NCBI RefSeq assembly: GCF_017744445.1
Contig: NZ_JAGIBH010000012.1
Coordinates: forward strand, 1-64,000
Reading direction: 5' to 3'
DNA: 64,000 nt
Origin: Caulobacter sp.
GTDB taxonomy: Bacteria > Pseudomonadota > Alphaproteobacteria > Caulobacterales > Caulobacteraceae
The notes under the pieces are model-generated. The model ran no database searches, was not told the DNA's origin, and worked only from the letters and a program-made list of their open reading frames with translations. Each line of letters begins with the position of its first letter. The first letter of the stretch is position 1. Positions 1,073 to 54,404 of this stretch are shown piece after piece. The position numbers and the translations under genes were made by a program.

Positions 1073-1313
1073 GCGTGTTTCGCTCCCGTTGCGCAGATCC
1101 CAGGTCGCTGTTTTGCGCCCTGCCAGTGACTCTAGCGAGACCAATTGTCCGAGAACAAGCGAATTCGCCTATGCGGTAAAGACGCATTGAAGTCGGGTCC
1201 TGGCTCAAATGTACGATGAATTGGGCCTCGAAGTTTCCTCGCGGAAACCGGCCTGGACGAATTTCTCCCGACGGATCGCACGAAACGTCGTTTGACAGCG
1301 CGCGTCGCCACGC

Positions 1314-1328
1314 TATTTGTCGGACTAT
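1314..1328. promoter_or_regulatory. Putative GntR/FadR-type operator upstream of the aldose operon
   Basis: TATTTGTCGGACTAT is a near copy of 196-210. Bases 1317-1327 (TTGTCGGACTA) match TNGTNNNACNA. It lies 26 bases before the chosen GTG at 1354, where bound repressor would block transcription or promoter escape. The remainder of the 1073-1353 gap shows no other gene. Confidence 0.6.
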
Positions 1329-1353
1329 TATAAAGCTTCAGAGGGTCGTCGCC

Positions 1354-3278: not shown

Positions 3279-3303
3279 TCAAGAACGACAAAGGGAGAGA
3301 AAC

Positions 3304-6864: not shown

Positions 6865-7431
6865 CTAGCGCGTCGCCCAGGCCTTGCCGATCTCGGCCAT
6901 CGGCACGCAGCCGTGATAGGCGCCGGGCACGGGATCGTACTTCAGCGCCTCGGTTGCCCCAGCTTCCGACGTGAAGTAGCCAACCGTCACCATATCCTCC
7001 AACGCCGGGAAGAAGTGCGACTGGCCCTGGCCACGCGCCGCGCCGCCTTCCTGGTCGTAGGTCGTCAGCAGCGCGACTTGCTGCTCGGGCGCCAGGTCAA
7101 CGAAGACATTCCCGCTCGCCGCGCGAGCGTCGGCGTCCATACGCGCCAGGCCGCTCAGCAGCTGATCCACCTGATCCTTGGTGTAATAATCGCCCACGGC
7201 CCGGTCGATGAACCGCGGAACGCCGGCGGCGCGAGCGCCGGGGGTGTCCGTCGCCGGAATGATCAACTCGGCCACCACGTCCAGCAGCCGCGCCTGGTCG
7301 ACAGTCAGGGCCTTGGGCGTCCAGCTGAGCGCCGGGGCCGGCGCGGCGGCCAGGGCGCGCTGAGCCCAGCCCGTCGAGGCGACGCCGACCGCCAGGGCCA
7401 GGCCGCGCAGAGTATCGCGTCGGTTCAGCAT
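6865..7431 (-). CDS. Tat-exported small subunit of a GMC dehydrogenase (gluconate 2-dehydrogenase subunit 3 family)
   Basis: A protein of 188 aa starting at ATG 7431, overlapping the stop of the GMC gene by one base. The N-terminus NRRDTLRGLALAVGVAST is a twin-arginine signal. The body is typical of the gluconate 2-dehydrogenase subunit 3 family: LLDVVAELIIPATDTPGARAAGV, FIDRAVGDYY, and the C-terminal FFPALEDMVTVGYFTSE and AYHGCVP. In characterised pairs (glucoside 3-dehydrogenase, FAD-glucose dehydrogenase) this subunit carries the flavoprotein through the Tat system and stabilises it. The large subunit here has no signal of its own, so it probably travels as a hitchhiker. Co-translation is implied by the overlap. 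Confidence 0.88.
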   Translation of the reverse strand: MLNRRDTLRGLALAVGVASTGWAQRALAAAPAPALSWTPKALTVDQARLLDVVAELIIPATDTPGARAAGVPRFIDRAVGDYYTKDQVDQLLSGLARMDADARAASGNVFVDLAPEQQVALLTTYDQEGGAARGQGQSHFFPALEDMVTVGYFTSEAGATEALKYDPVPGAYHGCVPMAEIGKAWATR

Positions 7432-9179
7432 CAGATGTCTCCCCGCTTGCGAGCCTTGACCGCGTGGTCGGCGGCGCGGGCTGTTAGGGCCATGTAGGTC
7501 AGGGACGGGTTCACGCACGAAGCCGAGGTCATCGCCGCCCCGTCGGTGACGTAGACGTTCGTGCACTCATGCACCTGGTTGTGGGCGTTCAGCACCGAAG
7601 TCTTGGGGTCGCGCCCCATGCGGGCGGTGCCCATCTCGTGGATGCCCAGGCCCGGAGCGAAGCCACTGTCGTAGCCCTTCACGTTCTTGAAGCCGGCGGC
7701 CTCCAGCATTTCAATCGCCGAAGCCTGCATGTCGCGCCGCATGGCCAGTTCGTTCTCGCGCATGGTGACGTTGATCGACAAGGTCGGCAGGCCAAAGGCG
7801 TCCTTCTTGTCCCGGTTCAAGGTGATACGGTTGTCCTCATAAGGCAGGAACTCGCCGAAGCCGCCCAGCCCCATGCTCCACGGCCCCGGCTGAGTCAGCG
7901 CGGCCTTGCGCGCCTCGCCAAAGCCCTTGGCGCCCTTAGCCCGGTTGCCCAGGTCGCGGTCCCAGGTCGAACGCGCCGCGCCGCCCTGGTAGCCGAAGCC
8001 CCGCAGGTAGTCGCTGCGCTTGGTGGTCTCGTCACCCAGATTGCGGAAACGCGGCACATAGATGCCGTTGGGCCGCCGCCCCGAATAGTACATGTCGGCG
8101 AACTCGGGCGCCTCGCCGGTCGCGCCGACGCCCAGGTGGTGGTCCATGACGTTGCGGCCCAGCTGGTCGCTGCCGTTACCGAAACCGTTCTCGAACCGCG
8201 AGCTGGTCGAGTTCATCAGGATCCAGGCCGAGTTGAAGGCCGAGGCGCAGATGAAGATGACGTCGGCGTGGAACTCCTCGTCCTTCTTGGTTTCGGCGTC
8301 CAGGATCCGCACGCCGGAAGCCTTTCCGGCCTTCGGGTCATAGACGATCTCGGTGACGATCGAGTTCGGACGGATAACCAGGTTGCCGGTGCGCTCGGCC
8401 GCCACCAGTCCGCCGGAGTTGGAGCTGTAGTAGCCGCCAAACGGGCAGCCCCGGATGCACATGTTGCGATACTGGCACTTGGTGCGACCCAGGCTGAGTT
8501 GCTCCTCGGTCGGATCGGTCAGGTGAGCCGTGCGACCCATGCTGATCCGGCGCTCGGGGAAGCGCGCCTCGGACTTGGCCTTGAAAGCCTTCTCGACGCA
8601 GTTCATCTCCATCGGCGGCTGGTAGTGGCCGTCCGGGAAGTGCGCCAAGCCCTCGTGCTGGCCCGAGACGCCGATGAAGCGTTCGACGTGCTCGTACCAG
8701 GGCGCCAGATCCTCGTAGCGGATCGGCCAGTCGACGGCGATCCCCTCACGGGCGTTGCCTTCGAAGTCTAGCTGGCTGTGGCGATAGCTCTGCCGCCCCC
8801 AGGTCAACGACCGGCCGCCGACGTGATAGCCGCGGATCCAGTCGAACCGGTTTTCCTCGGTATAGGGGTGCTCGTCGTCCTTGACGAAGAAGTGCCGCGT
8901 GTACTCGGTCATCGTGTAGTTGGTGCGGCGCTGCACCGGATAGTGCGCTTGCAGCTCCGCCTCCGGCAGCTGGCCCTGCGGGTACTGTGTCTGCCACGGA
9001 TCCAGGACGGCGGTCGGATAGTCCTCGAGGTGCTTGACCATGCGGCCCCGCTCAAGAACCAGGACCTTCAGGCCCTTCTGAGTCAGCTCCTTGGCCGCAA
9101 TACCACCCGTGATACCGCTACCAACAACAATCGCATCGTAGGTGTTCTTGCGCTTCGCGCGGCCGCTCACATTGGCCAT
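7431..9179 (-). CDS. GMC-family FAD dehydrogenase with predicted 3Fe-4S cluster (glucoside 3-dehydrogenase-like large subunit)
   Basis: A protein of 582 aa. The FAD-binding motif IVVGSGITGGIAAKEL is near residues 17-32. The catalytic GMC pair is His about 514 (LGIHEMGTARMG) and Asn about 557 (SCVNPSLTYMA). Cys235, Cys241 and Cys245 (KCQYRNMCIRGCPFG) have C-x5-C-x3-C spacing, the spacing reported for the 3Fe-4S cluster of bacterial FAD-glucose dehydrogenase. There is no signal peptide; export would rely on the Tat signal of the following subunit. With the nearby cytochrome c, DUF1080 proteins and isomerases, the best reading is a periplasmic enzyme that oxidises C3 of glycosides or sugars. Other sugar hydroxyl positions remain possible. 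Confidence 0.88.
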   Translation of the reverse strand: MANVSGRAKRKNTYDAIVVGSGITGGIAAKELTQKGLKVLVLERGRMVKHLEDYPTAVLDPWQTQYPQGQLPEAELQAHYPVQRRTNYTMTEYTRHFFVKDDEHPYTEENRFDWIRGYHVGGRSLTWGRQSYRHSQLDFEGNAREGIAVDWPIRYEDLAPWYEHVERFIGVSGQHEGLAHFPDGHYQPPMEMNCVEKAFKAKSEARFPERRISMGRTAHLTDPTEEQLSLGRTKCQYRNMCIRGCPFGGYYSSNSGGLVAAERTGNLVIRPNSIVTEIVYDPKAGKASGVRILDAETKKDEEFHADVIFICASAFNSAWILMNSTSSRFENGFGNGSDQLGRNVMDHHLGVGATGEAPEFADMYYSGRRPNGIYVPRFRNLGDETTKRSDYLRGFGYQGGAARSTWDRDLGNRAKGAKGFGEARKAALTQPGPWSMGLGGFGEFLPYEDNRITLNRDKKDAFGLPTLSINVTMRENELAMRRDMQASAIEMLEAAGFKNVKGYDSGFAPGLGIHEMGTARMGRDPKTSVLNAHNQVHECTNVYVTDGAAMTSASCVNPSLTYMALTARAADHAVKARKRGDI

Positions 9180-9352
9180 GTTCGCTCCCTTTGCGGCCGC
9201 TCGATGGACCGCGTCGGCAGCTGGTAAGCAACACGACGCCCCGACCTCGGCGAACCCCTCATTCTTGCCTGGAGGCTTCCATGAAATGGGTTACATTGCA
9301 AGAAAGCTCGGCATTTCATGTCAAAATCGTCGAGCGCCTGGGAGGGACAAGA
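9180..9352. promoter_or_regulatory. Divergent promoter region between the GMC dehydrogenase and DUF1080 genes
   Basis: A 173-base gap between two divergent starts. It contains CATGAAATG at 9280-9288 and ATTTCATG at 9313-9320, an imperfect inverted pair about 25 bases apart, with ATTGCAA between them. The + strand gene has a clear GGAGGG ribosome binding site at 9341-9346. I cannot assign a regulator; the island's LacI protein is the obvious candidate. Confidence 0.4.
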
Positions 9353-10159
9353 ATGATCAGATCGACCGCCGGGGCCCTGGCCCTGCTGCTGGCGCTTGGC
9401 GCGGGCGAGGCGCATGCGCAGGACGTGAAGGCCGGCCCGTGGAAGCCGCTATTCGACGGCAAGACCCTGAACGGCTGGACACCCAAGATTGCCAAGCATC
9501 CGGCCGGTGAGAACTATCGCGACACCTTCGTCGTCGACCATGGCGCGATCCGGGTCTCGTACGCCGGATACGACACGCTGGACGGCCAGTTCGGGCACCT
9601 CTTCTACAAGACGCCGTTCAAGGCCTACCGCCTGAAACTGACCTACCGCTTCCTGACCGAGGGCGGCCTGGCCGACACGCCGGCCTGGGCGCGCAGCAAC
9701 AGTGGGATCATGTTCCTGAGCCAGAGCCCAGAGAGCATGACCGTCGAGCAGCCGTTCCCGGTCTCGGTCGAATTCCAGCTGCTGGGCAAGGACGGCGACG
9801 CGCCCCGCTCCACCGGCTCGGTTTGTACGCCCGGCCTGACCATCGCCATCGACGGGACGAAGGTGAAGGAGCATTGCACGATCTCGAAGAACGCCCCGAC
9901 CATCCCGAACGGGACCTGGGTCCAGGCCGAACTGGAAGTCTTGCCCAACGGCGAGATCACCCAGAAGATCAACGGCGTGGCGGTCCACAAATATGCCGAC
10001 GTAACCCTGGATCCGGACGACACTGTCGCCGGCGGCGCCAAGCCCTACATCCTGGCGCGCGGCGCGGCTCCGGTGACCGAGGGTTACATCGCCCTGCAGA
10101 GCGAAGGCCACCCGATCGAATTCAAGGATATCCAGATCCAGGAGCTGACGGCGCGGTAG
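9353..10159 (+). CDS. Secreted DUF1080 protein (3-keto-disaccharide hydrolase family)
   Basis: A protein of 268 aa from ATG 9353 after GGAGGGACAAGA. Residues 1-22 form a Sec signal peptide (…GEAHAQDV). The single DUF1080 jelly-roll domain follows: WKPLFDGKTLNGWTPK, NSGIMFLSQSPES, VEFQLLGKDG, GTWVQAELEVLPNG, and the closing GYIALQSEGHPIEFKDI. PF06439 members are now annotated as 3-keto-disaccharide or 3-keto-glycoside cleaving enzymes. Placed divergently from the GMC dehydrogenase, this protein would cleave the 3-keto product in the periplasm. A purely carbohydrate-binding role cannot be excluded from sequence. There is a second DUF1080 protein at 16193-16993. Confidence 0.85.
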   Translation: MIRSTAGALALLLALGAGEAHAQDVKAGPWKPLFDGKTLNGWTPKIAKHPAGENYRDTFVVDHGAIRVSYAGYDTLDGQFGHLFYKTPFKAYRLKLTYRFLTEGGLADTPAWARSNSGIMFLSQSPESMTVEQPFPVSVEFQLLGKDGDAPRSTGSVCTPGLTIAIDGTKVKEHCTISKNAPTIPNGTWVQAELEVLPNGEITQKINGVAVHKYADVTLDPDDTVAGGAKPYILARGAAPVTEGYIALQSEGHPIEFKDIQIQELTAR

Positions 10160-10175
10160 TCCCACAAACACCGAG

Positions 10176-10275
10176 CATCCCCGCCGAAAGCGGGGATCCA
10201 TGCGGACTTTCGGGGGTTTGGCGCGGTCGGAAACTAACCCGCTGGCTCGGCTTGGATCCCCGCTTTCGCGGGGAT
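10176..10275. repeat. Pair of inverted REP-like extragenic palindromes
   Basis: Unit one, CATCCCCGCCGAAAGCGGGG (10176-10195, continuing ATCC), and unit two, ATCCCCGCTTTCGCGGGGAT (10256-10275), are each hairpin-forming. They are inverted relative to each other, separated by about 55 bases. They sit between the convergent DUF1080 and cytochrome c genes, so they may also end transcription from both sides. Confidence 0.75.
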
Positions 10276-10296
10276 GATCGGTTTGGGGAAATCGAT

Positions 10297-10656
10297 CTAT
10301 TTCTTGATGGACGTCAGGTACTGGATCACCGCCGCGCGCTTGGCGGCGTCCGCCTCTCCTAGCAGCATCTTGGTGCCCGGCACGGTCTTGCCCGGGGCCT
10401 TGATGAAGGCGTCCAGCTGGTCGGCGGTCCAGGTGATGTTCGAGCCCTTCAGCGCGGTGCTGTAGGCAAAGCCCGGCGCGGCCGCGGCCTTGCGACCGAC
10501 GACGCCGGCCAGCGGCGGCCCCATCTTGCCCGGCGCGGGCTGCAGCGAGTGGCACATGGTGCACTTCTGCTCGAACACCTGTTGGCCGGAGACCTGCGCG
10601 GCGGCGCTGGTCGCCATGCCCATCAGGATGGCGGCGAGCGTAAGCTGGAACTTCAT
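10297..10656 (-). CDS. Class I cytochrome c, periplasmic
   Basis: A protein of 119 aa with a Sec signal peptide (residues 1-20, ending SAAAQ). The haem-binding motif CTMCH is at about residues 32-36, PGKMGPPLAGVVGR follows, and the distal Met ligand is in PGTKMLL. The C-terminal helix is AVIQYLTSIKK. It is a soluble monohaem cytochrome of the c-550 type. It is the last gene of the five-gene operon that starts with the MFS transporter. Because the GMC dehydrogenase needs a periplasmic electron acceptor, this cytochrome is the likely partner linking it to the respiratory chain. That pairing is inferred from context. Confidence 0.92.
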   Translation of the reverse strand: MKFQLTLAAILMGMATSAAAQVSGQQVFEQKCTMCHSLQPAPGKMGPPLAGVVGRKAAAAPGFAYSTALKGSNITWTADQLDAFIKAPGKTVPGTKMLLGEADAAKRAAVIQYLTSIKK

Positions 10657-10690
10657 CGAGGAAACTCTCCGTCAGAATTTGGCGGCGGCC

Positions 10691-11746
10691 TTAAAGACCC
10701 AATAGCCGGCGATTGCGACCAGCGTCTGGCGCGCTGCCGGCGAAGTCGTCGAAGGCCTTGTCCGTGACCTGGATGATGTGGTCTCGGATGAACGGCGCGC
10801 CTTCGCGGGCGCCCTGTTCCGGGTGCTTCAGCGCGCACTCCCACTCCAGCACCGCCCAGCCGTCGAAATCGTATTGGGCCAGCTTGGAGAAGATCGCCTT
10901 GAAATCCACCTGGCCATCGCCCAGCGACCGGAAACGCCCTGGCCGCTCGGCCCAGCCCTGATAGCCGCCATAGACGCCCGACTGGGCCGTCGGCCGGAAC
11001 TCGGCGTCCTTGACGTGGAACGCCTTGATCCGCTCGTGGTAGCGGTCGATGTAGCCCAGATAGTCCAGCTGCTGCAGGACGAAGTGGCTGGGATCGAACA
11101 GGATATTGGCGCGCGGGTGGCCGCCGACCTCGTCCAGGAACCGCTCGAAGGTCGCGCCGTCGTGCAGGTCCTCGCCCGGATGGATCTCGTAGGCCGCGTC
11201 GACGCCGTTCTCCTCGAAGACGTCCAGGATCGGCTTCCAGCGCCGGCCAAGCTCGGCGAAAGCCTCCTCGATCAGGCCCGCCGGCCGCTGCGGCCACGGA
11301 TAGACATAGGGCCAGGCCAGCGAGCCCGAGAAGGTGGCGTGCGCCTTCAGCCCCAGGCGACGGCTGGCGACGGCGGCGGCCTTCACCTGCCCGACAGCCC
11401 ATTCCTGGCGCTCCTTGGGCTTGCCGCGCAGCTCGGGCGGCGCGAAGCCGTCGAACAGCTCGTCATAGGCCGGATGCACGGCGACCAGCTGGCCCTGCAG
11501 GTGGGTCGAGAGTTCGGTGATCTCCAGGCCGTATTCAGCGAGCAGACCGGCGATGTCGTCGCAATAGGTCTGGCTCTCGGCGGCCAGGGCCAGGTCGAAG
11601 AACGAATCCGCCCCGCCCGTCGGCATCTGCACGCCGAGATAGCCGAGGTCAGAGACCCATTTGGCCATGGTCTCCAGCTTGTCGAACGGCGGCTCGCTGC
11701 CGATGAACTGGGCCAGGAAGATGGCCGGTCCCTTGAGCGTCTTCAT
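10691..11746 (-). CDS. Sugar isomerase/epimerase-type TIM barrel (AP endonuclease 2 superfamily), cytoplasmic
   Basis: A protein of 351 aa starting at ATG 11746, which overlaps the stop of the oxidoreductase upstream (TGATG). There is no signal peptide. The metal-binding residues expected of this barrel are visible: Glu about 187 (AAYEIHPGEDLHD), Asp218 and His221 (LFDPSHFVLQ), His244 (KAFHVKDAEF) and Glu301 (AVLEWECAL). The family includes xylose isomerase-like, IolE-like and 3-keto-sugar isomerase enzymes. In this operon it probably isomerises or epimerises a 3-keto-sugar together with the Gfo/Idh/MocA enzyme. The exact reaction is not determinable from sequence. Confidence 0.88.
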   Translation of the reverse strand: MKTLKGPAIFLAQFIGSEPPFDKLETMAKWVSDLGYLGVQMPTGGADSFFDLALAAESQTYCDDIAGLLAEYGLEITELSTHLQGQLVAVHPAYDELFDGFAPPELRGKPKERQEWAVGQVKAAAVASRRLGLKAHATFSGSLAWPYVYPWPQRPAGLIEEAFAELGRRWKPILDVFEENGVDAAYEIHPGEDLHDGATFERFLDEVGGHPRANILFDPSHFVLQQLDYLGYIDRYHERIKAFHVKDAEFRPTAQSGVYGGYQGWAERPGRFRSLGDGQVDFKAIFSKLAQYDFDGWAVLEWECALKHPEQGAREGAPFIRDHIIQVTDKAFDDFAGSAPDAGRNRRLLGL

Positions 11747-12876
11747 CACGCCTCTCCTGTCAGCGACACCCAGCCGGCGTCGTCGCGGCTGGCGGCCACG
11801 GCGCGCTCGACGAAAGCCATGCCGCGCACGCCCTCGCCGATGTCGGGCACAAGCGCCCCGCCCCGCCCTTCGATGGCGTCGGCGAAATCGCGATAGATGT
11901 TGGCGAAGGCCTCGATGAAGCCCTCCGGATGGCCCGTCGGCAGGCGCGTCACGGCGCGAGCGCCCGCGCCCAGATAACCCGAACCGGCGTGCAGCACATG
12001 GCTGGGACCGTCCAGCCAGTCGATCGTCAGGACGTTGGGATCCTCGTGCGACCAGGTCAGGCCGCCCTTCTCGCCATAGACGCTCAGCGTCAGGCCGTTG
12101 CGGGCGCCCGCCGAGATCTGCGAAGCGATCAGCACGCCGCGCGCGCCACCGGCGAAGCGCAGCAGCACGTTGCAGTCGTCATCCAGGCTGCGGCCCGGCA
12201 CCACGGTGGCGACATCGGCGCACAGGCGCTCGACGCGGTGGCCAGTGACGAACTCGGCGATGTTGAAGGCGTGGACGCCGATGTCGCCGATGCAGCCGCC
12301 GACGCCGGACTGCTTGGGATCGCCGCGCCAGCTGGCCTGCTTGTTGGCCTCGTCCAGCTCCAGGGGCTTCGACAGCCAGCCTTGCGAATATTCGACCACC
12401 ACCTTGCGCACCGCGCCCAGGTCACCCCGCGCCACGATCTCACGCGCTTCGCGAACCATGGGATAGCCGGTGTAGGTGTAGGTGAGGCCGTAGTGTTTGC
12501 CAGACGCCGCGACGATGCCAGCCAACGCTTCCGCCTCGGCCAGATTCAGGGTCGCGGGCTTGTCGCTGATCACGTGCAGCCCACCCTTCAGCGCGGCGGC
12601 CGAGACGTCGAAGTGCAGGTGGTTGGGCGTCACCACCGAGACCAGCTGGACCCCATCCGGCCGCGCCGTCTCGGCGGCGATCATCGCGTGATGATCCGGA
12701 TAGACCCGGTCGGGCGCGACGCCCCAGGCGGCGGCCGCCTGGGCGTTCTTGGCCGGGTCGCGGCTGAACACCCCGGCGACCAGCCGGATACGGCCATCCA
12801 GCTCGGCGGCCATGCGGTGCACCGGCCCGATGAACGAGCCGGGACCGCCGCCGACCATGGCCATCCGCAGAGCCAT
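11746..12876 (-). CDS. Gfo/Idh/MocA family NAD(P)-dependent oxidoreductase
   Basis: A protein of 376 aa from ATG 12876; both ends overlap their neighbours by one base (TGATG). The Rossmann motif MVGGGPGSFIGPVHRMA is at residues 6-22. The Lys-Pro motif appears as ISDKPATLNLAEAEAL. The catalytic Asp/His stretch is GGCIGDIGVHAFNIAEFVTG. It is cytoplasmic. Members of this family in 3-keto-glycoside loci reduce or oxidise the C3 carbonyl with NAD(H). Here it is sandwiched between two TIM-barrel isomerases, so it would regenerate a normal sugar from the 3-keto form after uptake. The direction is inferred. Confidence 0.88.
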   Translation of the reverse strand: MALRMAMVGGGPGSFIGPVHRMAAELDGRIRLVAGVFSRDPAKNAQAAAAWGVAPDRVYPDHHAMIAAETARPDGVQLVSVVTPNHLHFDVSAAALKGGLHVISDKPATLNLAEAEALAGIVAASGKHYGLTYTYTGYPMVREAREIVARGDLGAVRKVVVEYSQGWLSKPLELDEANKQASWRGDPKQSGVGGCIGDIGVHAFNIAEFVTGHRVERLCADVATVVPGRSLDDDCNVLLRFAGGARGVLIASQISAGARNGLTLSVYGEKGGLTWSHEDPNVLTIDWLDGPSHVLHAGSGYLGAGARAVTRLPTGHPEGFIEAFANIYRDFADAIEGRGGALVPDIGEGVRGMAFVERAVAASRDDAGWVSLTGEA

Positions 12877-13802
12877 CAGGCGACGACCTTGGCGAGGTAA
12901 TCGTAGCTGATCTTGGCCGACTCCAGGCGCGGATGGGCGAACGGCGGCTCCTGCTCGTAGTAGAAGCCGCGGATGCCGGCGGCGTAGGCGGCGGGCAGCA
13001 ACTTCTTCCAGTCAATCATGCCGCCGCCGACCTCGGTCGGGTCCTGCTTCAGCTCGAAATTGGCCTTGGTGGTCGGCTTGATGTCCTTGACGTGCATCTG
13101 GGTGAAGCGCCCCGGATGCGCCTTCAGCATGGCCAGCGGATCGTGGCCGGCGGCGGTGACCCAGCCAGCGTCCATCTCGAAGGTGACCAGGTTCGGATCC
13201 GTGCCCTTCAGCAGGATCTCCATGCCGTTGGTGTCACCCAGCGGCGCGAACTCGAAATTGTGGTTGTGATAGCCGCTGATGATGCCGGCCTTCTTCAGCA
13301 CGGCGGCCTTCTCGTTGAGGAAGTCGGCGTTCCATTTCCAGTCGTCGGCGGTCATCTGCACGCCCGCCTGCCGCAGGTCGGCGCCGCCCATGCGATCGGG
13401 GATGTAGAAGATCGGCATCATCACCGACTTCACGCCGATCACGTGCATGTCGTCGGCCAGCTTGGCCAGGTCGCCGCTGAAGCCGCCCCCCCCCTTGGGC
13501 GAGATGTGGGCGCTGGGGCAGATCAGACCCGCCTTGTCGAACGCGGCGCGCAGCTCGGCCGGCGTGCGGCCCAGATAGCCGGCCAGTTCGACCGACTTGA
13601 AGCCGATCTTGGAAACCGTGGCCAGTTGGGCGTCCAGTTCCTTCGCCAGGTCCGGGCCCAGGCTGTAGAGCTGGATGCCGACCGGCTGCTTGTGGCGTTG
13701 GAAGAACGGCGCCTCAGCGGCGGTGGCGGCGCCGGTCAAGGTCGCGCCCAGCACAGCCGCGCCAGCGCCCAGAAGGCCACGTCGAGAAAGGTGTTGGTTC
13801 AC
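12876..13802 (-). CDS. Tat-exported sugar isomerase/epimerase-type TIM barrel
   Basis: A protein of 308 aa. I chose GTG 13802 because TAAGGAAAG lies just upstream, and because the protein then begins VNQHLSRRGLLGAGAAVL, a proper twin-arginine signal. The longer frame to 13871 adds a proline-rich, unlikely N-terminus. The barrel has PVGIQLYSLGPDL, SVELAGYLGRTPAELR, GYHNHNFEFAPLG with Glu, TFEMDAGWVTAAGHDP, THMHVKD-like MHVKDIKP and FYYEQEPP. It therefore acts in the periplasm, unlike its cytoplasmic relative at 10691-11746. A periplasmic isomerase beside a periplasmic 3-dehydrogenase suggests the keto-sugar is processed before uptake. Confidence 0.88.
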   Translation of the reverse strand: MNQHLSRRGLLGAGAAVLGATLTGAATAAEAPFFQRHKQPVGIQLYSLGPDLAKELDAQLATVSKIGFKSVELAGYLGRTPAELRAAFDKAGLICPSAHISPKGGGGFSGDLAKLADDMHVIGVKSVMMPIFYIPDRMGGADLRQAGVQMTADDWKWNADFLNEKAAVLKKAGIISGYHNHNFEFAPLGDTNGMEILLKGTDPNLVTFEMDAGWVTAAGHDPLAMLKAHPGRFTQMHVKDIKPTTKANFELKQDPTEVGGGMIDWKKLLPAAYAAGIRGFYYEQEPPFAHPRLESAKISYDYLAKVVA

Positions 13803-13812
13803 GGGGCTTTCC

Positions 13813-15054
13813 TTAGACTTGAGCCGCGGAGGCGGTGGCGGGAACGTCGTCGGTCTCGGCGACCGGACCATGCGACGGCGGGCGGAAGAACACCGCCAGC
13901 AGGCAGACGGCGGCCAGCGCCATGCCGGTCGGGACCAGGAACAGGGTGGTGTAGTCGACCGCTCCGCCGGCGCTCAGCTTGCTGACCAATTCGGGGAACA
14001 GGAAGCTGGCCACCACATTACCGATCCCCAGGATCAGCAGGTTGAACAGGCCCTGGGCGCTGGAGCGCACGTCCTTGGGGAACACCGCGTCGACAAAGAT
14101 GTACACGGTGGCGAAGAAGAACGCGTAGCAGATGCCGTGCAGCAATTGGACCGCCACGATGGTCGGGATGCTGTCGGCGAAGAAGGCGAAGACCGCGAAA
14201 CGAGCGGCGTGGCCCAGCACGCCGATGATCATCGTCACCTTCCAACCCAGCTTGGCCAGCACGCGGCCAAGTAGGAACATGGTCAGGATCTCGGCCACCT
14301 GGCCCAGGCTCAGCACGACCATCGACAGGTTGCCGGCGATGCCCACGCGGTTTGTGAGGAAGGCGTCGGCCATCACGAAGTAGCCGTTGTGGATGACGCT
14401 ATCGATGAAGGTGACGATGAACAGCACCAGCACGAATGGCGCGCCCAACAGCTTGAAGGCGCGGCGCCAGGCCAGGTTGTCGATGCCGGGCGCGTCCTTG
14501 CGGGCGGGCGTGTGCGGCAGGGTCAGGGCGTAGCCGGCGAAGGCGAACGAGACGATCGCCGCGACCAGGAAGATCCAGCGCACCTGCTCGACCGAGGCCT
14601 GGGCGCCCAGCAGGAAGACGAACGGCCAGCTGACCAGCACCCAGCCGACGGTCCCGCCCATCCGCACCGCGCCGAAGCCGGCGGCCGGATCCTTCAGGTT
14701 GGCGAAGGCGATCGAGTTGGTCACCGACAGGGTCGGCACATAGACCAGGCTGAACACCAGGTAGCAGGCGAAGAACGGCCAGAAGTCGGTGGCGAAAGCG
14801 GTGCCGACCAAGGCCAGGCCGCCGATTAGGTGGCTGACAGCCAGGAAACGCTCGGCCGCGAAGTTGCGGTCGGCGAACTGGTTGGAAAAGAAGATGCCGA
14901 CCAGGGCGGCCACGCCCCACGAGCTGCCGACCAGCGACTGCTGCCAGGGCTCGAAACCCAGCATGCCCATGTAGGGGAAGATCTTCGGCGCCCAGGCGCC
15001 CCAGATCGCCAGCTGCAGCACCATCATCACGAAGAGCCGGAAGCTCGTGTTCAT
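13813..15054 (-). CDS. MFS transporter, nucleoside:H+ symporter (NupG)-like
   Basis: A protein of 413 aa with about twelve hydrophobic segments. It starts MNTSFRLFVMMVLQLAIWGA. The stretches WGVAALVGIFFSNQFADRNF, VYVPTLSVTNSIAFANL and FGAVRMGGTVGWV are typical of the NupG/XapB-like subfamily that is common in glycoside-3-oxidation loci. It is an inner-membrane proton symporter, and the likely cargo is the glycoside or 3-keto-sugar. It is the first gene of the operon MFS, Tat isomerase, oxidoreductase, isomerase, cytochrome c, and ends ten bases before the next start. It is divergent from the LacI regulator. Confidence 0.87.
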   Translation of the reverse strand: MNTSFRLFVMMVLQLAIWGAWAPKIFPYMGMLGFEPWQQSLVGSSWGVAALVGIFFSNQFADRNFAAERFLAVSHLIGGLALVGTAFATDFWPFFACYLVFSLVYVPTLSVTNSIAFANLKDPAAGFGAVRMGGTVGWVLVSWPFVFLLGAQASVEQVRWIFLVAAIVSFAFAGYALTLPHTPARKDAPGIDNLAWRRAFKLLGAPFVLVLFIVTFIDSVIHNGYFVMADAFLTNRVGIAGNLSMVVLSLGQVAEILTMFLLGRVLAKLGWKVTMIIGVLGHAARFAVFAFFADSIPTIVAVQLLHGICYAFFFATVYIFVDAVFPKDVRSSAQGLFNLLILGIGNVVASFLFPELVSKLSAGGAVDYTTLFLVPTGMALAAVCLLAVFFRPPSHGPVAETDDVPATASAAQV

Positions 15055-15125
15055 GGACCTGGCCCTCCCCGACCAGTTTTGGGCGGCTGGTTTCGTCCGT
15101 TTTGGACGGCCTCCGCTCCGATGTA

Positions 15126-15140
15126 ATCGAAATCATCGAT
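15126..15140. promoter_or_regulatory. Putative LacI operator in the MFS / LacI divergent region
   Basis: The inverted repeat ATCGA-aatca-TCGAT is in the 139-base gap between the two divergent starts, 72 bases from the MFS ATG and 54 from the LacI ATG. A short palindrome at such a place is typical of LacI sites, but the match is modest. Confidence 0.4.
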
Positions 15141-15193
15141 AACAGGGGTCCGCTAGCTTGCCAAGCTGTCGGCTAGTCGCCAGTGTCCGGCCG

Positions 15194-16201
15194 ATGGCGA
15201 CCATTCAAGACGTTGCCCGCGACGCGGGCGTCTCCACAGCGACTGTTTCCAGGGTGTTCAGCGCGCCCGAACTGGTGCTGGAGACCACGCGCCATAAGGT
15301 GATGGAGGCTGTCACCCGCCTGGGTTACGAGCCCAACTTCGCGGCCAAGAGCCTGCGCACCCTTCGGACCGAAAAGATCCTGGTCACCGTGCCGGACATC
15401 TCCAACCCGTTCTTCTCGCAGGTCATCCGGGGCGTCGAGGAAGCCGCCCTGGCCGCCGGCTATTCGGTGCTGCTGGGCGACACCCGCCATGAGGAGACGC
15501 GCGAGGAGCAATATGCGGCCATGTTCCGCCGCAAGGAGGCCGACGGCCTGATCTTCCTGGGCCATCGCCTGCCCGACGTGCTGGCCGAGATGGTCGCCGC
15601 CAAGGGCCCCAAGACGCCGATCGTCAATGGCTGCGAGTTCCGCCCGGGCCTGGCCGTCTCCAGCGCCCATATCGACAACGAGCGCGCCGCCGCCGAGGCC
15701 GTCGAGTATCTCTACGAGCTTGGCCACACCCGCGTCGGCGCGGTGACCGGCCCGCTGGCCAGCCCGATCAGCAGCGACCGCCTGAACGGCGTGCTGGCCG
15801 CCGCCCAGCGTCATGGCCGCGCCAGCGCCCTACGCATCGCCATCGGCGACTTCTCGATCGAGTCGGGCGTGCGCCAGGCCGGCGAGCTGCTGGACGAGCC
15901 CGGCCGGCCGACGGCGATCTTCTGCTTCAGTGACGAGATGGCCATGGGCGCGCTGGAGGCGATCCGCCAGCGCGGCCTGCGGTGTCCCGAGGACGTGTCG
16001 CTGGTCGGCTTCGACGACATCCGCTTCGCCCAGTACCTGTATCCGCAGCTGACCACGGTGCGCCAGCCCAAGGAGCAGATCGGCCACGAGGTGGTGCGTT
16101 TGCTGTTGGACATCCTGGCCGACCGGACCAGCACCCTGCAGAACGTCACCCTGCCCCATCAACTGGTGGTGCGCTCCAGCACCGCGCCGCCGTCAGCCTA
16201 G
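15194..16201 (+). CDS. LacI family transcriptional regulator
   Basis: A protein of 335 aa. ATG 15194 gives the canonical LacI start MATIQDVARDAGVSTATVSR; the upstream extension to 15158 is not conserved. The hinge helix is NFAAKSLRTLRT. The periplasmic-binding-protein-like effector domain begins ILVTVPDISNPFFSQVIRGV and contains GHTRVGAVTGP, IFCFSDEMAMGALEAIRQRG, VSLVGFDDIRFA and LTTVRQPKEQIG. It is divergent from the 3-oxidation operon and is the likely repressor for the island, with the inducer being the sugar or its keto-derivative. Its last nine bases overlap the convergent DUF1080 gene. Confidence 0.93.
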   Translation: MATIQDVARDAGVSTATVSRVFSAPELVLETTRHKVMEAVTRLGYEPNFAAKSLRTLRTEKILVTVPDISNPFFSQVIRGVEEAALAAGYSVLLGDTRHEETREEQYAAMFRRKEADGLIFLGHRLPDVLAEMVAAKGPKTPIVNGCEFRPGLAVSSAHIDNERAAAEAVEYLYELGHTRVGAVTGPLASPISSDRLNGVLAAAQRHGRASALRIAIGDFSIESGVRQAGELLDEPGRPTAIFCFSDEMAMGALEAIRQRGLRCPEDVSLVGFDDIRFAQYLYPQLTTVRQPKEQIGHEVVRLLLDILADRTSTLQNVTLPHQLVVRSSTAPPSA

Positions 16202-16993
16202 CGGCGTCGGCAGCTCGCGAACCCAGATGTTGCGGAAGCTGATCGGCTCGCTGGGATCGCCATGCGCCTGCAGCTTGATCGGCGCAGCCCCGTGCGATTT
16301 GTAGGTCGGCTTGCCGATATAGACCGTCTCGCCGGCCAGCACGGCGTTGTCCTGCACCAGCACGCCATTGTGCAGCACCGTCACCGTCGCCGGCCTGGAC
16401 AGCGCTCCTTCGGCGCCGAAAGTCGGCGGATGCCAGATGATGTCGTAGGTCTGCCACTCGCCCGGCTTGCGGCTGGCGTTCGCCAGGGGCGGATGCTGCT
16501 TGTAGACGCTGGCGGCCTGGCCGTTGACGTAAGTGGCGTTGCCGTAGCTGTCGAGGATCTGCACCTCGTAGCCCTGGTCGCGCGGACCGGTGGACGCCAG
16601 GAAGACGCCGCTGTTGCCCCGCGCCTGCCCCGAGCCGGTGATATTGGCCGGGACACGCCATTCCAGGTGCAGTTGGTAGTCGCGGAACGAGCGCTTGGTC
16701 TCGATGTTGCCGCGCGCCTTGTTGACGGTGATCACTCCGTCGGAAACGGTCCAGCCAGCCGGCGACTTGTCCAGGGCCGAGACCCACTGATCCAGATTCT
16801 TGCCGTCAAAGAGGACGATCGCATCGGCCGGCGCACCGCCGACATCCTGGGCCGGCGCCACGACCGGAACCGCCGGCTTCCAGACCTCGGTCTCTTCCGG
16901 CTTGGCCCCTTCTGGCTTGGTTTGGGCCACAGCCAGAGACACCGCCGCCAGGCCGCCGACCATGGCGAACGCCAGGACGCTGCTACGCTTCAT
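16193..16993 (-). CDS. Secreted DUF1080 protein (3-keto-disaccharide hydrolase family), second copy
   Basis: A protein of 266 aa with a Sec signal peptide (residues 1-23) and a Pro/Glu-rich linker up to about residue 50. The DUF1080 domain has IVLFDGKNLDQWVSALDKS, LEWRVPANITGSGQARGNSG, VFLASTGPRDQGYEVQIL, WQTYDIIWHPPTF, and the closing PIKLQAHGDPSEPISFRNIW. These are the residues usual for the family's catalytic jelly roll, which is more classical here than in the copy at 9353-10159. Its 3' end overlaps the LacI gene by nine bases. Two divergent DUF1080 copies in one island suggest different linkages or anomers. The cleavage function follows from the family, not from this sequence alone. Confidence 0.87.
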   Translation of the reverse strand: MKRSSVLAFAMVGGLAAVSLAVAQTKPEGAKPEETEVWKPAVPVVAPAQDVGGAPADAIVLFDGKNLDQWVSALDKSPAGWTVSDGVITVNKARGNIETKRSFRDYQLHLEWRVPANITGSGQARGNSGVFLASTGPRDQGYEVQILDSYGNATYVNGQAASVYKQHPPLANASRKPGEWQTYDIIWHPPTFGAEGALSRPATVTVLHNGVLVQDNAVLAGETVYIGKPTYKSHGAAPIKLQAHGDPSEPISFRNIWVRELPTPLG

Positions 16994-17644: not shown

Positions 17645-18853
17645 ATGTCCGATGCGCAGAGCCGGCGTTCCCGCGAGCCGCACGACGAGGGGGCCAATCT
17701 GTCCGGCACCAATATCGAGCGGGCCGGCGACTACAATCAGCGCGTCGCCCTGCAATCGATCCGCATCGGCCTGGCCAAGACCAAGCAGGAAGTCGCCACC
17801 TATACGGGGCTGACCGTCCCGGCGATCACCAACATCACCAACCGCCTGCTCGAGGAAGGCCTGGTCATCGAGGCCGGCAAGCTGCACGGCGCCCGCGGAC
17901 AGCCGGCCATGACCTTCACGATCAATCCGGACGGCTGCTACTCGATCGGCCTGAATATCGACCGTGACCACATCACGATCGTGCTCCTGGACCTGGCCGG
18001 CAAGGTCCGCGCCCGCGCCTCGCGTGAGGTCGCCTTCGCCAGCCCCAGCCAGGTCGCCGACTTCTTCGAGCAACACCGCAAGGCGTTCCGTAGGCTGAAG
18101 GGTATCCAGGCCGACCGGATCATCGGTGTCGGCGTGGCCGTGCCCGACGACCTGGCCAAGGGCGACCTGCCCCATCGGCCGGCCGACTACGAGGCCTGGA
18201 ACACGGTCGACATCCGCGCCCTGCTCTCGCCCGGCCACGACTGGCCGATCATGGTCGAGAACGACGCCGCCGCGGCCGCCCTGGGCGAGCTGCATTTCGG
18301 CCACGGCATGCGCAATCCCAGCTTCTTCTACATGCTGGTCAGCTCGGGCCTGGGCGGCGGCCTGGTCGTCGACGGCGAGTACTTCCGCGGCGCGCATGGT
18401 CGCAGCGGCGAGCTGGGCTTCCTGCCGGTAAGTGGCTCGGGTTCGGCGACCCTGGAGGACTTCGTCTCGCTGTCGTCGCTGAACGAGGCCCTGGGCGACT
18501 TGGCGCCGGCGGATCCCGCGCAGCTCGCCGACCTGCCGCCGGAAGGCCATGCGCGAGTCGACGCGTGGCTGAACATCGCGGCCGAGCGGCTGTGCGATCC
18601 CCTGGTCGCCATCAGTTGCTTGATCGATCCGCAGGCGGTGTTCATCGGCGGCCGCCTGCCCGGCTCGCTGATCGACCGTCTGGCCCAGGCCGTGAACGAC
18701 AAGCTGGCGGCGCGAAATCTGGCCCTGGCCATGGCCCCGGTGCGCCACGCGGCCCTCGCCGCCGACGCGCCGGCCCTGGGCGCGGCCATCCTGCCGATCA
18801 TCGCGCGCTACCTGCCGGTGCGCTCGGTGCTGCGGAACACCGCCCAGGCCTAG
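17645..18853 (+). CDS. ROK family transcriptional regulator (NagC/Mlc/XylR-like)
   Basis: A protein of 402 aa. The N-terminal winged helix covers about residues 30-90 (TKQEVATYTGLTVPAITNI, then NRLLEEGLVIEAGKLHGARG). A ROK sugar-kinase-like fold follows: YSIGLNIDRDHITIVLLDLA, VMVEN-type IMVENDAAAAALGELHFGHG, LVSSGLGGGLVVDGEYFRGA, and HGRSGELGFLPVSGSG. The usual ROK zinc motif CxCGxxGC after GELG is absent and replaced by PVSGSGSAT, so this is a regulator without the structural zinc. It probably senses a sugar and controls the alpha-galactosidase / TonB receptor operon that converges on it. The target is inferred from position. Confidence 0.88.
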   Translation: MSDAQSRRSREPHDEGANLSGTNIERAGDYNQRVALQSIRIGLAKTKQEVATYTGLTVPAITNITNRLLEEGLVIEAGKLHGARGQPAMTFTINPDGCYSIGLNIDRDHITIVLLDLAGKVRARASREVAFASPSQVADFFEQHRKAFRRLKGIQADRIIGVGVAVPDDLAKGDLPHRPADYEAWNTVDIRALLSPGHDWPIMVENDAAAAALGELHFGHGMRNPSFFYMLVSSGLGGGLVVDGEYFRGAHGRSGELGFLPVSGSGSATLEDFVSLSSLNEALGDLAPADPAQLADLPPEGHARVDAWLNIAAERLCDPLVAISCLIDPQAVFIGGRLPGSLIDRLAQAVNDKLAARNLALAMAPVRHAALAADAPALGAAILPIIARYLPVRSVLRNTAQA

Positions 18854-19034
18854 CCGGTCTGTCCTGGCGCCCACAGCCGCGCTTCGATGCGCTCGACCAG
18901 ATCGCGAACGACGGCCAGGGCGGCGTCGTAGGTCGCCGGCGTCGGCATTCGCAGGCGCGCTACGACCTCGCCATCGGCGCCAGGCCGGCGGCCTCGATCT
19001 TGGTCCCGCCGAAATCGACACCAATCTGGATCAC
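18850..19034 (-). pseudogene. Frameshifted, truncated remnant of a ROK sugar kinase
   Basis: Read from GTG 19034, the minus strand encodes VIQIGVDFGGTKIEAAGL, the N-terminal phosphate-1 loop of ROK kinases such as fructokinase or glucokinase, then runs into a TAG about 24 codons in. In another frame it continues GEVVARLRMPTPATYDAALA followed by VVRDLVERIEARLWAPGQTG and a stop at 18850. These two pieces join as the first ~60 residues of a ~300-aa ROK kinase. The rest is missing. The stop overlaps the last bases of the neighbouring ROK regulator gene, so the truncation point coincides with that gene's end. This explains the otherwise empty 18854-19110 gap. Confidence 0.75.
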
Positions 19035-19110
19035 TGGAAAGCCTCGATAGCGCACGAAGGGGCGCCGCCCCGCGTCAGCGTTGGTTGGAGAAACAGGAAG
19101 ACGGACGCCG

Positions 19111-20313
19111 CTAGGGCGCGATGCGGACCATGACCACGCCGTGCGGCTGGACGGTCGCGACGAACCGCCCCTTCATCGCGACTAGGTCCTTGCCGGCCCA
19201 CAGATCGCGCACCTGAGCCTTCAGCGTCGCGGGATAGCCCAGCTCGGTCCAGTCGACCGTGATCGGCTTGGCCGCCTCGCCACGGTTGAACAGGATCACC
19301 GCCCGGCTGCCATCGGCCAGCGGCTTGGACCACACCTCCAGATCGCCATCGTCGCGCACGCGGCGCCCCTGGACGCCCAGTCGGTCCTGGTTCACGGCGA
19401 TGACCTCCCTGTTCAGCAGGATGTCGCGCGTGTCCTTGTCCATGTTGGCCACGTCATTGCCGGCGATCAGCGGCGCGGCCATCAGGGCCCACAGGCTGAA
19501 GTGCGAGCGATACTCGGTTGTGGTCAGGCCGCCATTGCCGACCTCCAGCATGTCCGGATCGTTCCAGTGGCCTGGCCCCGCGAACGGATGCAGCGGCTCG
19601 TTCAAGTCGACGATGCGAAGGACGCCCAGCGAGTAGTCATGCTTGCCGTCCCACTTGTCGGTGATGTCGCCGGTCGTGCGCCACAGATTACCGATGGCGC
19701 TGGCCCACAGCCACGGCTTGGCCGTGCCCCATTCGCACATCGAGAAGACGATATCGCGGCCGGTCTCGCGCAAGGCGTCCGCCATCAGGGTGTAGGCTTC
19801 CTCGGCGTTGCGTGTACCGGTGGAGCACCAGTCGTACTTCAGATAGTCGACACCCCAGGCGGCATAGGTCTTGGCGTCCTGGTACTCATGTCCCTGGCTG
19901 CCCGGACGACCACCGCAGGTCTGCCGGCCAGCGTCGGAATAGATGCCGAACTTCAAGCCCTTCGAATGGACATAGTCCGCCAGCGCCTTGATGCCGCCGG
20001 GAAAGCGCTTGGCGTCATAGGTAATGAAGCCGTTCGCATCACGCGCGCCATGCCAGCAATCGTCGATCACCACATATTGGTAGCCGGCGTCCTTCATACC
20101 GTTCGAAGCCATGGCGTCAGCGACGCGGCGCACCGTGGCCTCGTCGATATTGCAGGCGAACTTGTTCCAGCTGTTCCAGCCCATCGGCGGCGTCTGGGCC
20201 AGGCCATTGGCGACGCGCGGCGGCGGGTCCTTGTCGGCCGCGAACGCAGCGGATGGGAGAACCAGCGCGGCGGTCGCCAGCAAGGCGATCAGACGCGGGG
20301 ATGGCCTAGGCAT
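19111..20313 (-). CDS. Alpha-galactosidase, GH27, secreted
   Basis: A protein of 400 aa from ATG 20313. Residues 1-26 form a Sec signal peptide (…PSAAFAADK). GH27 landmarks run through the whole catalytic barrel: TPPMGWNSWNKFACNID, YVVIDDCWHGARD, GIYSDAGRQTCGGRPGS, the nucleophile Asp161 in DYLKYDWCS, the acid/base Asp216 in LWRTTGDI, and GHWNDPDMLEVGNGGLT. A short C-terminal beta-sandwich ends VQPHGVVMVRI. It hydrolyses terminal alpha-galactosides in the periplasm or at the cell surface. Its start overlaps the end of the halogenase gene by eight bases, placing it third in the TonB receptor operon. Asn-to-Trp after the nucleophile (KYDWC rather than KYDNC) is a visible variation. Confidence 0.93.
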   Translation of the reverse strand: MPRPSPRLIALLATAALVLPSAAFAADKDPPPRVANGLAQTPPMGWNSWNKFACNIDEATVRRVADAMASNGMKDAGYQYVVIDDCWHGARDANGFITYDAKRFPGGIKALADYVHSKGLKFGIYSDAGRQTCGGRPGSQGHEYQDAKTYAAWGVDYLKYDWCSTGTRNAEEAYTLMADALRETGRDIVFSMCEWGTAKPWLWASAIGNLWRTTGDITDKWDGKHDYSLGVLRIVDLNEPLHPFAGPGHWNDPDMLEVGNGGLTTTEYRSHFSLWALMAAPLIAGNDVANMDKDTRDILLNREVIAVNQDRLGVQGRRVRDDGDLEVWSKPLADGSRAVILFNRGEAAKPITVDWTELGYPATLKAQVRDLWAGKDLVAMKGRFVATVQPHGVVMVRIAP

Positions 20314-21853: not shown

Positions 21854-21877
21854 GCCGCCTTCGTTCGTCAAAAGGGT

Positions 21878-21902
21878 CCCCGCCGGCGAGAGGCCGGCGG
21901 GG
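21878..21902 (-). terminator. Hairpin between receptor and halogenase genes, possible partial terminator
   Basis: A perfect 10-bp GC stem CCCCGCCGGC / GCCGGCGGGG (21878-21887 and 21893-21902) has a 5-base loop. On the minus strand it is followed by ACCCTTTTG. It lies directly after the receptor stop. A leaky terminator would set more receptor than enzyme from one promoter; it could also be an mRNA-stabilising hairpin. Confidence 0.55.
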
Positions 21903-21913
21903 TTACAGGGGGC

Positions 21914-36497: not shown

Positions 36498-36501
36498 GCG
36501 A

Positions 36502-38736: not shown

Positions 38737-38855
38737 TCTAGTCCCCTCATTGTTGTGTGCGCCGGACGGCCCCCGGGGCGATGCGCCCTCTTCCCGCCGA
38801 CGCTGAGAGGTCGTCCGGGTTCCCCGTTTCCGACCTCAGCCCATTACGCAAATTT

Positions 38856-38899: not shown

Positions 38900-38912
38900 G
38901 GCAATTACGCGG

Positions 38913-51310: not shown

Positions 51311-51332
51311 ACTCGACTCCCCAACCCGACTG

Positions 51333-54344: not shown

Positions 54345-54404
54345 GCCACTCCCCAAAATCTACTTTCGGTAAGTGATAAGGCCCCATCCCTGCCCGACCA
54401 TCCT

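What the first reader, a model, noticed from the sequence alone, without database searches (positions are those of the whole stretch)
6865..16993. Complete periplasmic glycoside 3-oxidation island
A GMC dehydrogenase with a Tat-exported small subunit, a cytochrome c acceptor, two secreted DUF1080 proteins, a periplasmic and a cytoplasmic TIM-barrel isomerase, a Gfo/Idh/MocA enzyme, an MFS transporter and a LacI regulator are together. Family knowledge (DUF1080 as 3-keto-disaccharide cleaving proteins; glucoside 3-dehydrogenases with this subunit type) supports an oxidise-at-C3, cleave, then re-reduce route that breaks glycosides without classical hydrolases. The Tat-signal isomerase in the periplasm is unusual.
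Basis: partly seen in the sequence, partly recalled or inferred. Interest (0 to 1): 0.85.

Follow-up and report, generated by a model that had tools for sequence, protein, structure and literature searches.

The report
Caulobacter lac-type 3-keto-glycoside utilization locus
This gene block probably lets a Caulobacter bacterium oxidise sugars outside its inner membrane, break them without an ordinary glycosidase and finish the job inside; a matching block is already known from Caulobacter crescentus, but its two 'isomerases' are better read as a periplasmic lyase and a cytoplasmic hydratase.

Summary
The window is from the genus Caulobacter. By gene content and order the island fits the published description of the C. 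crescentus lacABC/DUF1080 locus, with mutant phenotypes on lactose, raffinose and salicin (PMC9007349), so it is not new. Mechanism can be sharpened. The cytoplasmic TIM barrel closely matches a solved 2-hydroxy-3-keto-glucal hydratase (8ro4, E 2.5e-184). The Tat-exported one is nearest to the O-glycoside beta-eliminase AtOGE (8bvk), whose catalytic His and metal ligands it keeps (40 of 40 sequences). The DUF1080 folds resemble 3-keto-glycoside eliminase/hydratases. Likely route: oxidation and elimination in the periplasm, import of a keto-glycal and/or keto-hexose, hydration, then Gfo/Idh reduction. The exported TIM barrel is not unusual: it is in all 18 other Caulobacter islands fetched, and an exported TIM barrel of another subfamily lies in 7 of 7 Bacteroidota clusters checked. 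Additions: a 23-bp candidate operator found once in the genome, and Ala in place of the proton-coupling Asp of the carrier's family. Interest modest.

The parts
6865..7434 (-). Small subunit of the dehydrogenase (Gluconate_2-dh3), Tat-like signal; proposed to carry the GMC subunit out
   Evidence: PF13618 126 bits; start and ATGA overlap read; only PF13618 match found in the assembly
7431..9179 (-). GMC flavoprotein, LacA-type glycoside 3-dehydrogenase; Cys 235, 241, 245 could bind a 3Fe-4S cluster as in fructose/glucose dehydrogenase (cluster recalled); His514/Asn557 pair
   Evidence: PF00732/PF05199; best PDB relative fructose dehydrogenase large subunit, E 2.6e-41; Cys 84 of 84, His and Asn 81 of 84 with 3 gaps
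9280..9301 (+). Conserved block CATGAAATGGGTTACATTGCAA between divergent GMC and DUF1080-A: candidate regulatory site or start of a short leader ORF
   Evidence: Identical in 19 of 20 aligned sequences incl. the window, 2 substitutions in L073; one copy in the assembly at up to 3 mismatches
9353..10159 (+). Secreted DUF1080 protein A; counterpart by position of CCNA_01705 (lactose); proposed periplasmic 3-keto-glycoside eliminase and/or hydratase
   Evidence: PF06439 130 bits; AlphaFold2 model pLDDT 89.3; Foldseek hits 8tda, 8rr2, 9fbe, E 2e-11 to 6e-11, TM 0.57-0.60
10297..10656 (-). c-type cytochrome with Sec-like signal, proposed electron acceptor (LacB-type by position)
   Evidence: PF00034, CxxCH
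10691..11749 (-). TIM2: proposed cytoplasmic 2-hydroxy-3-keto-glucal hydratase
   Evidence: 8ro4 '2-hydroxy-3-keto-glucal hydratase', 615.9 bits, E 2.5e-184, residues 2-352; no recognisable signal in homologues
11746..12876 (-). Gfo/Idh/MocA oxidoreductase, proposed cytoplasmic 3-keto-hexose reductase
   Evidence: PF01408, PF22725, PF02894; best PDB match 3v5n, E 7.9e-101, named only 'Oxidoreductase'
12876..13802 (-). TIM1: Tat-exported AtOGE-like TIM barrel, proposed periplasmic 3-keto-O-glycoside beta-eliminase
   Evidence: 8bvk (AtOGE) E 2.7e-22, 82.9 bits; next 3l23 74.2 bits; AtOGE H132, H134, D163, H189, E233 conserved 40 of 40; Tat motif
13813..15054 (-). Nuc_H_symport MFS carrier (YegT/NupG type), proposed importer of the cleaved keto-sugar; GxxxD Asp is Ala
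   Evidence: PF03825 549 bits; YegT 8zoj E 1.5e-37; Ala in 22 of 23 Caulobacteraceae sequences, exception L091
15122..15144 (.). Candidate LacI operator TGTAATCGA-AATCA-TCGATAACA
   Evidence: Both arms exact in 17 of 17 full-island genus loci that hold the gap; one place in the assembly at up to 3 mismatches, reversed-pattern control 0
15194..16201 (+). LacI-family regulator
   Evidence: PF00356, PF13377
16193..16993 (-). Secreted DUF1080 protein B; counterpart by position of CCNA_01698 (raffinose)
   Evidence: PF06439 161 bits; 4qhz ('putative glycosyl hydrolase') E 8.4e-83; model pLDDT 83.0; Foldseek 8rr2 5.2e-10, 8tda 6.2e-10

Best explanation
A lac-type 3-keto-glycoside utilization locus of Caulobacter that works in two compartments. 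In the periplasm the GMC/small-subunit/cytochrome c complex oxidises C3 of the non-reducing sugar of a glycoside (probably lactose, raffinose and aryl glucosides) and passes electrons to the respiratory chain. The 3-keto-glycoside is cleaved there without classical hydrolysis: the Tat-exported TIM1 by beta-elimination and the two DUF1080 proteins as eliminases and/or hydratases, giving the aglycone or second sugar and a 2-hydroxy-3-keto-glycal (perhaps partly hydrated to a 3-keto-hexose). A NupG/YegT-type carrier brings the product in; cytoplasmic TIM2 hydrates the glycal to a 3-keto-hexose and Gfo/Idh reduces it to the hexose. The LacI protein controls the divergent main promoter. Shown here: gene set, conservation, active-site residues, signals by eye. 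From the literature on homologues: chemistry of AtOGE, and phenotypes in C. crescentus. Inferred: all activities in this genome, the imported intermediate, substrates, the direction of the Gfo enzyme, and which site LacI binds.
For: Pfam for all parts. Published text: lacABC, a DUF1080, a transporter, two 'epimerases' and a reductase important for lactose in C. crescentus; the arrangement here fits. TIM2 closely matches a solved hydratase. TIM1 nearest AtOGE, its catalytic and metal residues 40 of 40; AtOGE chemistry and residues read. DUF1080 folds resemble 3-keto-glycoside eliminase/hydratases. Contrast within the genus: in 11 of 11 type II clusters, which give no hit to small subunit, DUF1080 or carrier profiles, TIM1 has no signal; in 18 of 18 fetched full islands it has a twin-arginine signal. 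29 of 30 TIM2 rows show the homologous start with no recognisable signal (the other is a cut copy of the window), although elimination is predicted outside: this fits a glycal crossing the membrane.
Against: No enzyme of this genome was assayed. DUF1080-A is remote from solved DUF1080s (best phmmer E 1.8e-8; Foldseek TM about 0.6, rmsd about 6 A). PDB titles disagree: 8tda and 8v31 say hydratase, 8rr2 and 9fbe eliminase/hydratase. If DUF1080s hydrate in the periplasm, a 3-keto-hexose rather than the glycal could be imported. Price et al. propose hydrolysis. TIM1's lead for AtOGE over other TIM barrels is modest (82.9 against 74.2 and 67.7 bits), so a hydratase or isomerase role is not excluded. 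The Agrobacterium hydratase was supported only by preliminary evidence in the paper read. The best Gfo matches have no stated function. Of 12 Bacteroidota loci with TIM2, one (L046) shows no carrier.
Confidence: 0.7

Rival explanations
1. Hydrolytic version (the published proposal for C. crescentus): DUF1080s hydrolyse 3'-ketolactose in the periplasm to glucose and 3-keto-galactose; the transporter, two 'epimerases' (the TIM barrels) and the reductase handle 3-keto-galactose.
For: Text of PMC9007349 section 10; Pfam names DUF1080 a hydrolase.
Against: TIM2 closely matches a solved 2-hydroxy-3-keto-glucal hydratase, which has no role if no glycal forms; entries for solved DUF1080s are titled eliminase/hydratase, one in complex with 2-hydroxy-3-keto-glucal; TIM1 resembles an eliminase.
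Confidence: 0.15
2. All cleavage and hydration happen in the periplasm (DUF1080s and TIM1); the carrier imports 3-keto-hexose, and TIM2 is a cytoplasmic back-up for leaked glycal.
For: PDB titles of solved DUF1080s include hydratase; the DUF1080s and TIM1 carry signals.
Against: TIM2 is the best kept of the island proteins across distant loci (90-100% in Caulobacter islands, 74-75% in Pseudoxanthomonas, 64-68% in Bacteroidota, against 52-61% for GMC in Bacteroidota loci with TIM2) and stays in both kinds of Caulobacter cluster, more than expected of a back-up.
Confidence: 0.3
3. The carrier is a true nucleoside permease that only happens to lie in the operon.
For: Family name Nuc_H_symport; NupG is a relative at E 2.9e-27.
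Against: Closer to YegT, for which ITC gave no significant nucleoside result; NupG uridine contacts Phe143, Tyr318 and Phe322 (named) are Trp, His and Tyr here (alignment; Asn228 could not be placed); a carrier of this family lies with TIM2 and Gfo in 11 of 12 Bacteroidota loci with TIM2; published lactose phenotype of the transporter at the C. crescentus locus.
Confidence: 0.04

Closest known systems
C. crescentus lacABC / CCNA_01698-CCNA_01705 lactose 3-oxidation locus (PMC9007349; Arellano 2010, cited there, not read)
   Same: LacABC dehydrogenase, two DUF1080s, transporter, two 'epimerases' and a reductase upstream of lacB, as described in the text
   Different: The section read calls cleavage hydrolysis, leaves the fate of 3-keto-galactose open and assigns no reaction to the 'epimerases'. 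Its figure and the C. crescentus sequence were not seen.
Agrobacterium tumefaciens GlycDH-AtOGE-AtHYD-Gfo operon (PMC10628242)
   Same: Dehydrogenase (GlycDH; that it is a GMC protein is recalled), AtOGE-like eliminase, putative hydratase, Gfo reductase: oxidation, elimination, hydration, reduction. A Tat-pathway protein was expressed with the Rhizobium GlycDH
   Different: AtOGE by its residue numbering starts at the barrel with no signal; here the eliminase is exported, DUF1080s are added and a NupG/YegT-type carrier is in the operon
Bacteroides/Alistipes DUF1080 entries 8tda, 8v31, 8rr2, 9fbe (PDB titles only)
   Same: DUF1080 fold
   Different: About 20% identity to the window proteins; partner genes not compared
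Levoglucosan pathway of Bacillus smithii (PMC7676230; search listing with title and start of abstract only; mentioned)
   Same: Oxidation, elimination, hydration, reduction logic
   Different: Starts with levoglucosan dehydrogenase; other substrate

Membership tests
LacABC-type periplasmic glycoside 3-dehydrogenase | GMC flavoprotein close to a Gluconate_2-dh3 small subunit and a c-type cytochrome | tested here: met
LacABC-type periplasmic glycoside 3-dehydrogenase | Oxidises lactose or glucosides at C3 | not testable with these tools
   needs enzyme assay
C. crescentus lac locus | Same gene content and order | tested here: inconclusive
   Fits the text and the spacing of locus tags 01698 and 01705; the C. 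crescentus sequence was not fetched
2-hydroxy-3-keto-glucal hydratase (8ro4; that this entry is AtHYD is recalled) | Full-length close homology | tested here: met
   615.9 bits over residues 2-352
2-hydroxy-3-keto-glucal hydratase (8ro4) | Hydrates the glycal | not testable with these tools
   needs assay
AtOGE beta-eliminase | Catalytic His134 and metal ligands H132, D163, H189, E233 | tested here: met
   40 of 40 sequences incl. the window, those above 100 bits with identical ones removed; residues
AtOGE beta-eliminase | Elimination of 3-keto-O-glucosides | not testable with these tools
   needs assay
DUF1080 / PF06439 | Profile score above curated cut-off | tested here: met
   130.1 and 160.8 against 26.8 bits
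NHS nucleoside-proton symporters | GxxxD motif with protonatable Asp in TM10 | tested here: not met
   Ala in the window; of 39 carriers, Ala in 22 and Asp in 17; motif from PMC11979927 passages

The most novel reading that the evidence does not exclude
[quoted passage not shown] That would be a new class of transport substrate for the Nuc_H_symport family.
Probability: 0.4. Interest if true: 0.55.

Novelty: new member of a known kind. Interest (0 to 1): 0.35.

Why it matters
The C. crescentus locus has published phenotypes but, in the section I could read, no assigned reaction for its two TIM barrels or its transporter. Reading them as eliminase, hydratase and keto-sugar importer gives a testable four-step scheme, and suggests that periplasmic, carrier-coupled, non-hydrolytic glycoside breakdown is a recurrent alternative to cytoplasmic versions.

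Tried and rejected
An N-terminal extension of DUF1080-A through the conserved block: the frame from the block's ATG runs into DUF1080-A in only 5 of 20 sequences and stops before in 15; a short leader peptide is not excluded.

Led nowhere: a simple TGTTATCGATAACA scan (one palindromic place elsewhere in the genome, control also 1 and 1; two 3-mismatch sites in the window against 0.25 expected; one 2-mismatch site in one of 32 loci), replaced by the spaced 9+5+9 palindrome. Neither conserved motif had a second copy in the assembly at up to 3 mismatches, so no outer-membrane receptor could be tied to the regulon. No PDB relative of the small subunit at E 0.01. The library did not hold Arellano 2010, nor papers under two DOIs that I remembered for this chemistry; searches did not show such papers; from that work only PDB names and titles are used. 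The Bacteroidota exported TIM barrels keep only the catalytic His and last Glu columns of the five AtOGE positions, so they are another subfamily or misaligned.
Full report
What is there. Pfam places Gluconate_2-dh3, GMC, two DUF1080, two AP_endonuc_2 TIM barrels, Gfo/Idh/MocA, Nuc_H_symport and LacI above their cut-offs, and the cytochrome c with CxxCH is at 10297-10656. Better starts are 7434 for the small subunit, 9353 for DUF1080-A, 13802 for the Tat TIM barrel and 15194 for LacI. Signals were judged by eye.

Where it is. The GMC protein is 84-95% identical (best segment) in the Caulobacter and near-Caulobacter loci, so the window is from Caulobacter. In a genus survey 36 of 61 genomes had a TIM2 match, 32 of them strong (E below 1e-160): the window's own genome and 31 others, whose neighbourhoods I fetched. 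Of the 31, 18 carry the order DUF1080-B, LacI, carrier, TIM1, Gfo, TIM2, cytochrome, DUF1080-A, GMC, small subunit (L087 and L089 are cut at contig ends and lack terminal genes; in L081 the GMC frame is split in two); 11 carry a second type; L088 and L091 are partial. So 19 of 61 genomes surveyed, with the window's own, hold the full type; 29 had no strong TIM2 match, some of them incomplete assemblies.

What is known. PMC9007349 (passages; section 10 in full; figure not seen) reports that in C. [quoted passage not shown] Two DUF1080s seven locus tags apart is the spacing seen here. I therefore take the island as the counterpart of that locus; I did not fetch the C. crescentus sequence.

Chemistry of the TIM barrels. 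TIM2 matches 8ro4, '2-hydroxy-3-keto-glucal hydratase', with E 2.5e-184 over residues 2-352. TIM1's best solved relative is 8bvk (82.9 bits, E 2.7e-22; next 3l23 at 74.2 and 3obe at 67.7 bits). PMC10628242 (abstract and outline; sections 7 and 8; passages) identifies 8bvk as AtOGE, which cleaves a 3-keto-O-beta-glucoside by beta-elimination. The ligands H132, D163, H189, E233 and catalytic H134 named there are conserved in 40 of 40 TIM1-type sequences above 100 bits, identical ones removed. The same paper describes an oxidation, elimination, hydration, reduction operon in Agrobacterium, with the hydratase supported by preliminary evidence. The DUF1080 models (pLDDT 89.3 and 83.0) find, besides unassigned structural-genomics entries, entries titled 3-Keto-2-hydroxy-glucal-hydratase (8tda, 8v31) and 3-keto-glycoside eliminase/hydratase (8rr2, 9fbe). 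Identity is only about 20%, so the fold is sure and the exact step is not.

Compartments. In 18 of 18 fetched full islands TIM1 has a twin-arginine signal; the 13 Caulobacteraceae rows agree, while two of four Pseudoxanthomonas rows there lack the second Arg and look Sec-like. In 11 of 11 type II clusters, TIM2-Gfo-TIM3-GMC-TIM1 (TIM3 found in 11 of 11; named AP_endonuc_2 in L090), TIM1 starts at the barrel without a signal. Within the fetched 15-19.5 kb these clusters gave no hit to small-subunit, DUF1080 or carrier profiles even at E 0.01, and one weak cytochrome-profile hit (L095, E 0.0035) away from the cluster. In 7 of 7 Bacteroidota clusters examined, of 12 with TIM2, a protein with a Tat- or lipoprotein-like start and an AP_endonuc_2 domain lies between carrier and GMC; it is of another subfamily. 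The other five were not examined this way, except that L046 has a TIM1-type protein with a Tat-like start. Of the 30 TIM2 rows, 29 show the homologous start without a recognisable signal and one is a cut copy of the window. Elimination outside with the hydratase inside suggests that the glycal crosses the membrane; this is inference, and periplasmic hydration by DUF1080s is a live rival.

Carrier. It is closer to YegT (E 1.5e-37) than to NupG (E 2.9e-27). PMC11979927 (passages) reports a GxxxD motif whose Asp is the protonation site, that NupG's Phe143, Tyr318, Phe322 and Asn228 are not conserved in YegT, and that ITC gave no significant nucleoside result for YegT. Here the first three are Trp, His and Tyr (alignment). 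In 39 distinct carrier sequences above 250 bits the Asp position is Ala in 22, all Caulobacteraceae, and Asp in 17 (Bacteroidota, Pseudoxanthomonas and the Caulobacter-genus L091); the motif Gly and NupG's Glu264 position are invariant. So the Caulobacter carrier may be uncoupled or coupled elsewhere.

Electron path. The GMC protein keeps three Cys in 84 of 84 sequences and the His and Asn in 81 of 84, gaps in three. That such Cys bind a 3Fe-4S cluster is recalled from fructose and glucose dehydrogenases, its best solved relatives. The type II GMC proteins keep the Cys too, so the Cys alone do not mark the periplasmic type.

Regulation. A 23-bp imperfect palindrome, TGTAATCGA-AATCA-TCGATAACA, lies at 15122-15144 between LacI and the carrier. 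Both arms are exact in 17 of 17 full-island genus loci that hold this gap and in Phenylobacterium L015; the spacer is AATCA or ATTCA. At up to 4 mismatches it is absent from L009 and L089 (cut before the gap), the partial islands L016, L088 and L091, and from 10 of 11 type II loci (L097 has one 4-mismatch match; L017 and L081 have one extra 4-mismatch match). It occurs at one place in the 5.34 Mb assembly at up to 3 mismatches, reversed-pattern control 0. A second block, CATGAAATGGGTTACATTGCAA, lies between GMC and DUF1080-A: 19 of 20 aligned sequences identical, two substitutions in L073, one copy in the assembly. That the LacI protein binds the palindrome is inference.

Verdict. I make no claim that these are unpublished: searches cover open-licence papers only.

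Noticed in passing
L090, L092-L101: Second, apparently cytoplasmic 3-keto-glycoside cluster in 11 Caulobacter-genus genomes: TIM2-Gfo-TIM3-GMC-TIM1 without signals; in L090 a phage-integrase-family frame lies beside it.
   Followed up: partly
window 13813-15054: The Nuc_H_symport GxxxD Asp is Ala in 22 of 23 Caulobacteraceae carriers (exception L091) but Asp in the Bacteroidota and Pseudoxanthomonas ones.
   Followed up: partly
window 15122-15144 and 9280-9301: Two conserved blocks with one copy each in the assembly: a spaced palindrome next to LacI, and a block that could be a regulatory site or the start of a short leader ORF (MKWVTLQ...).
   Followed up: partly
window 1216-4443: GguC/AraD1-family protein (522.9 bits), a Gfo/Idh protein and an aldose/galactose 1-epimerase beside the island: possibly an oxidative route for released galactose.
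   Followed up: no
window 17645-25192: ROK protein, alpha-galactosidase (Melibiase_2), tryptophan-halogenase-family protein and TonB receptor follow the island.
   Followed up: no
window 32771-43221: Beta-lactamase-fold proteins, DUF1611, TonB receptor, POT-family transporter and an enolase-superfamily protein: looks like a dipeptide utilization block.
   Followed up: no
window 48269-54356: Two adjacent ~1,000-aa pectate-lyase-like proteins with weak C-terminal SGL matches.
   Followed up: no
L017 / L081: GMC gene split in two frames in Caulobacter sp. BP25: frameshift or sequencing error.
   Followed up: no
L088, L091: Partial islands: L088 has carrier, Tat TIM1, TIM2, Gfo and LacI with no GMC or DUF1080 hit; L091 has LacI, carrier, Gfo, TIM2 and a weak cytochrome hit near a MobA/MobL gene.
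   Followed up: no
G000 contig C126: 85295 and 375838: Two further DUF1080 matches elsewhere in the genome, one below the curated cut-off.
   Followed up: no
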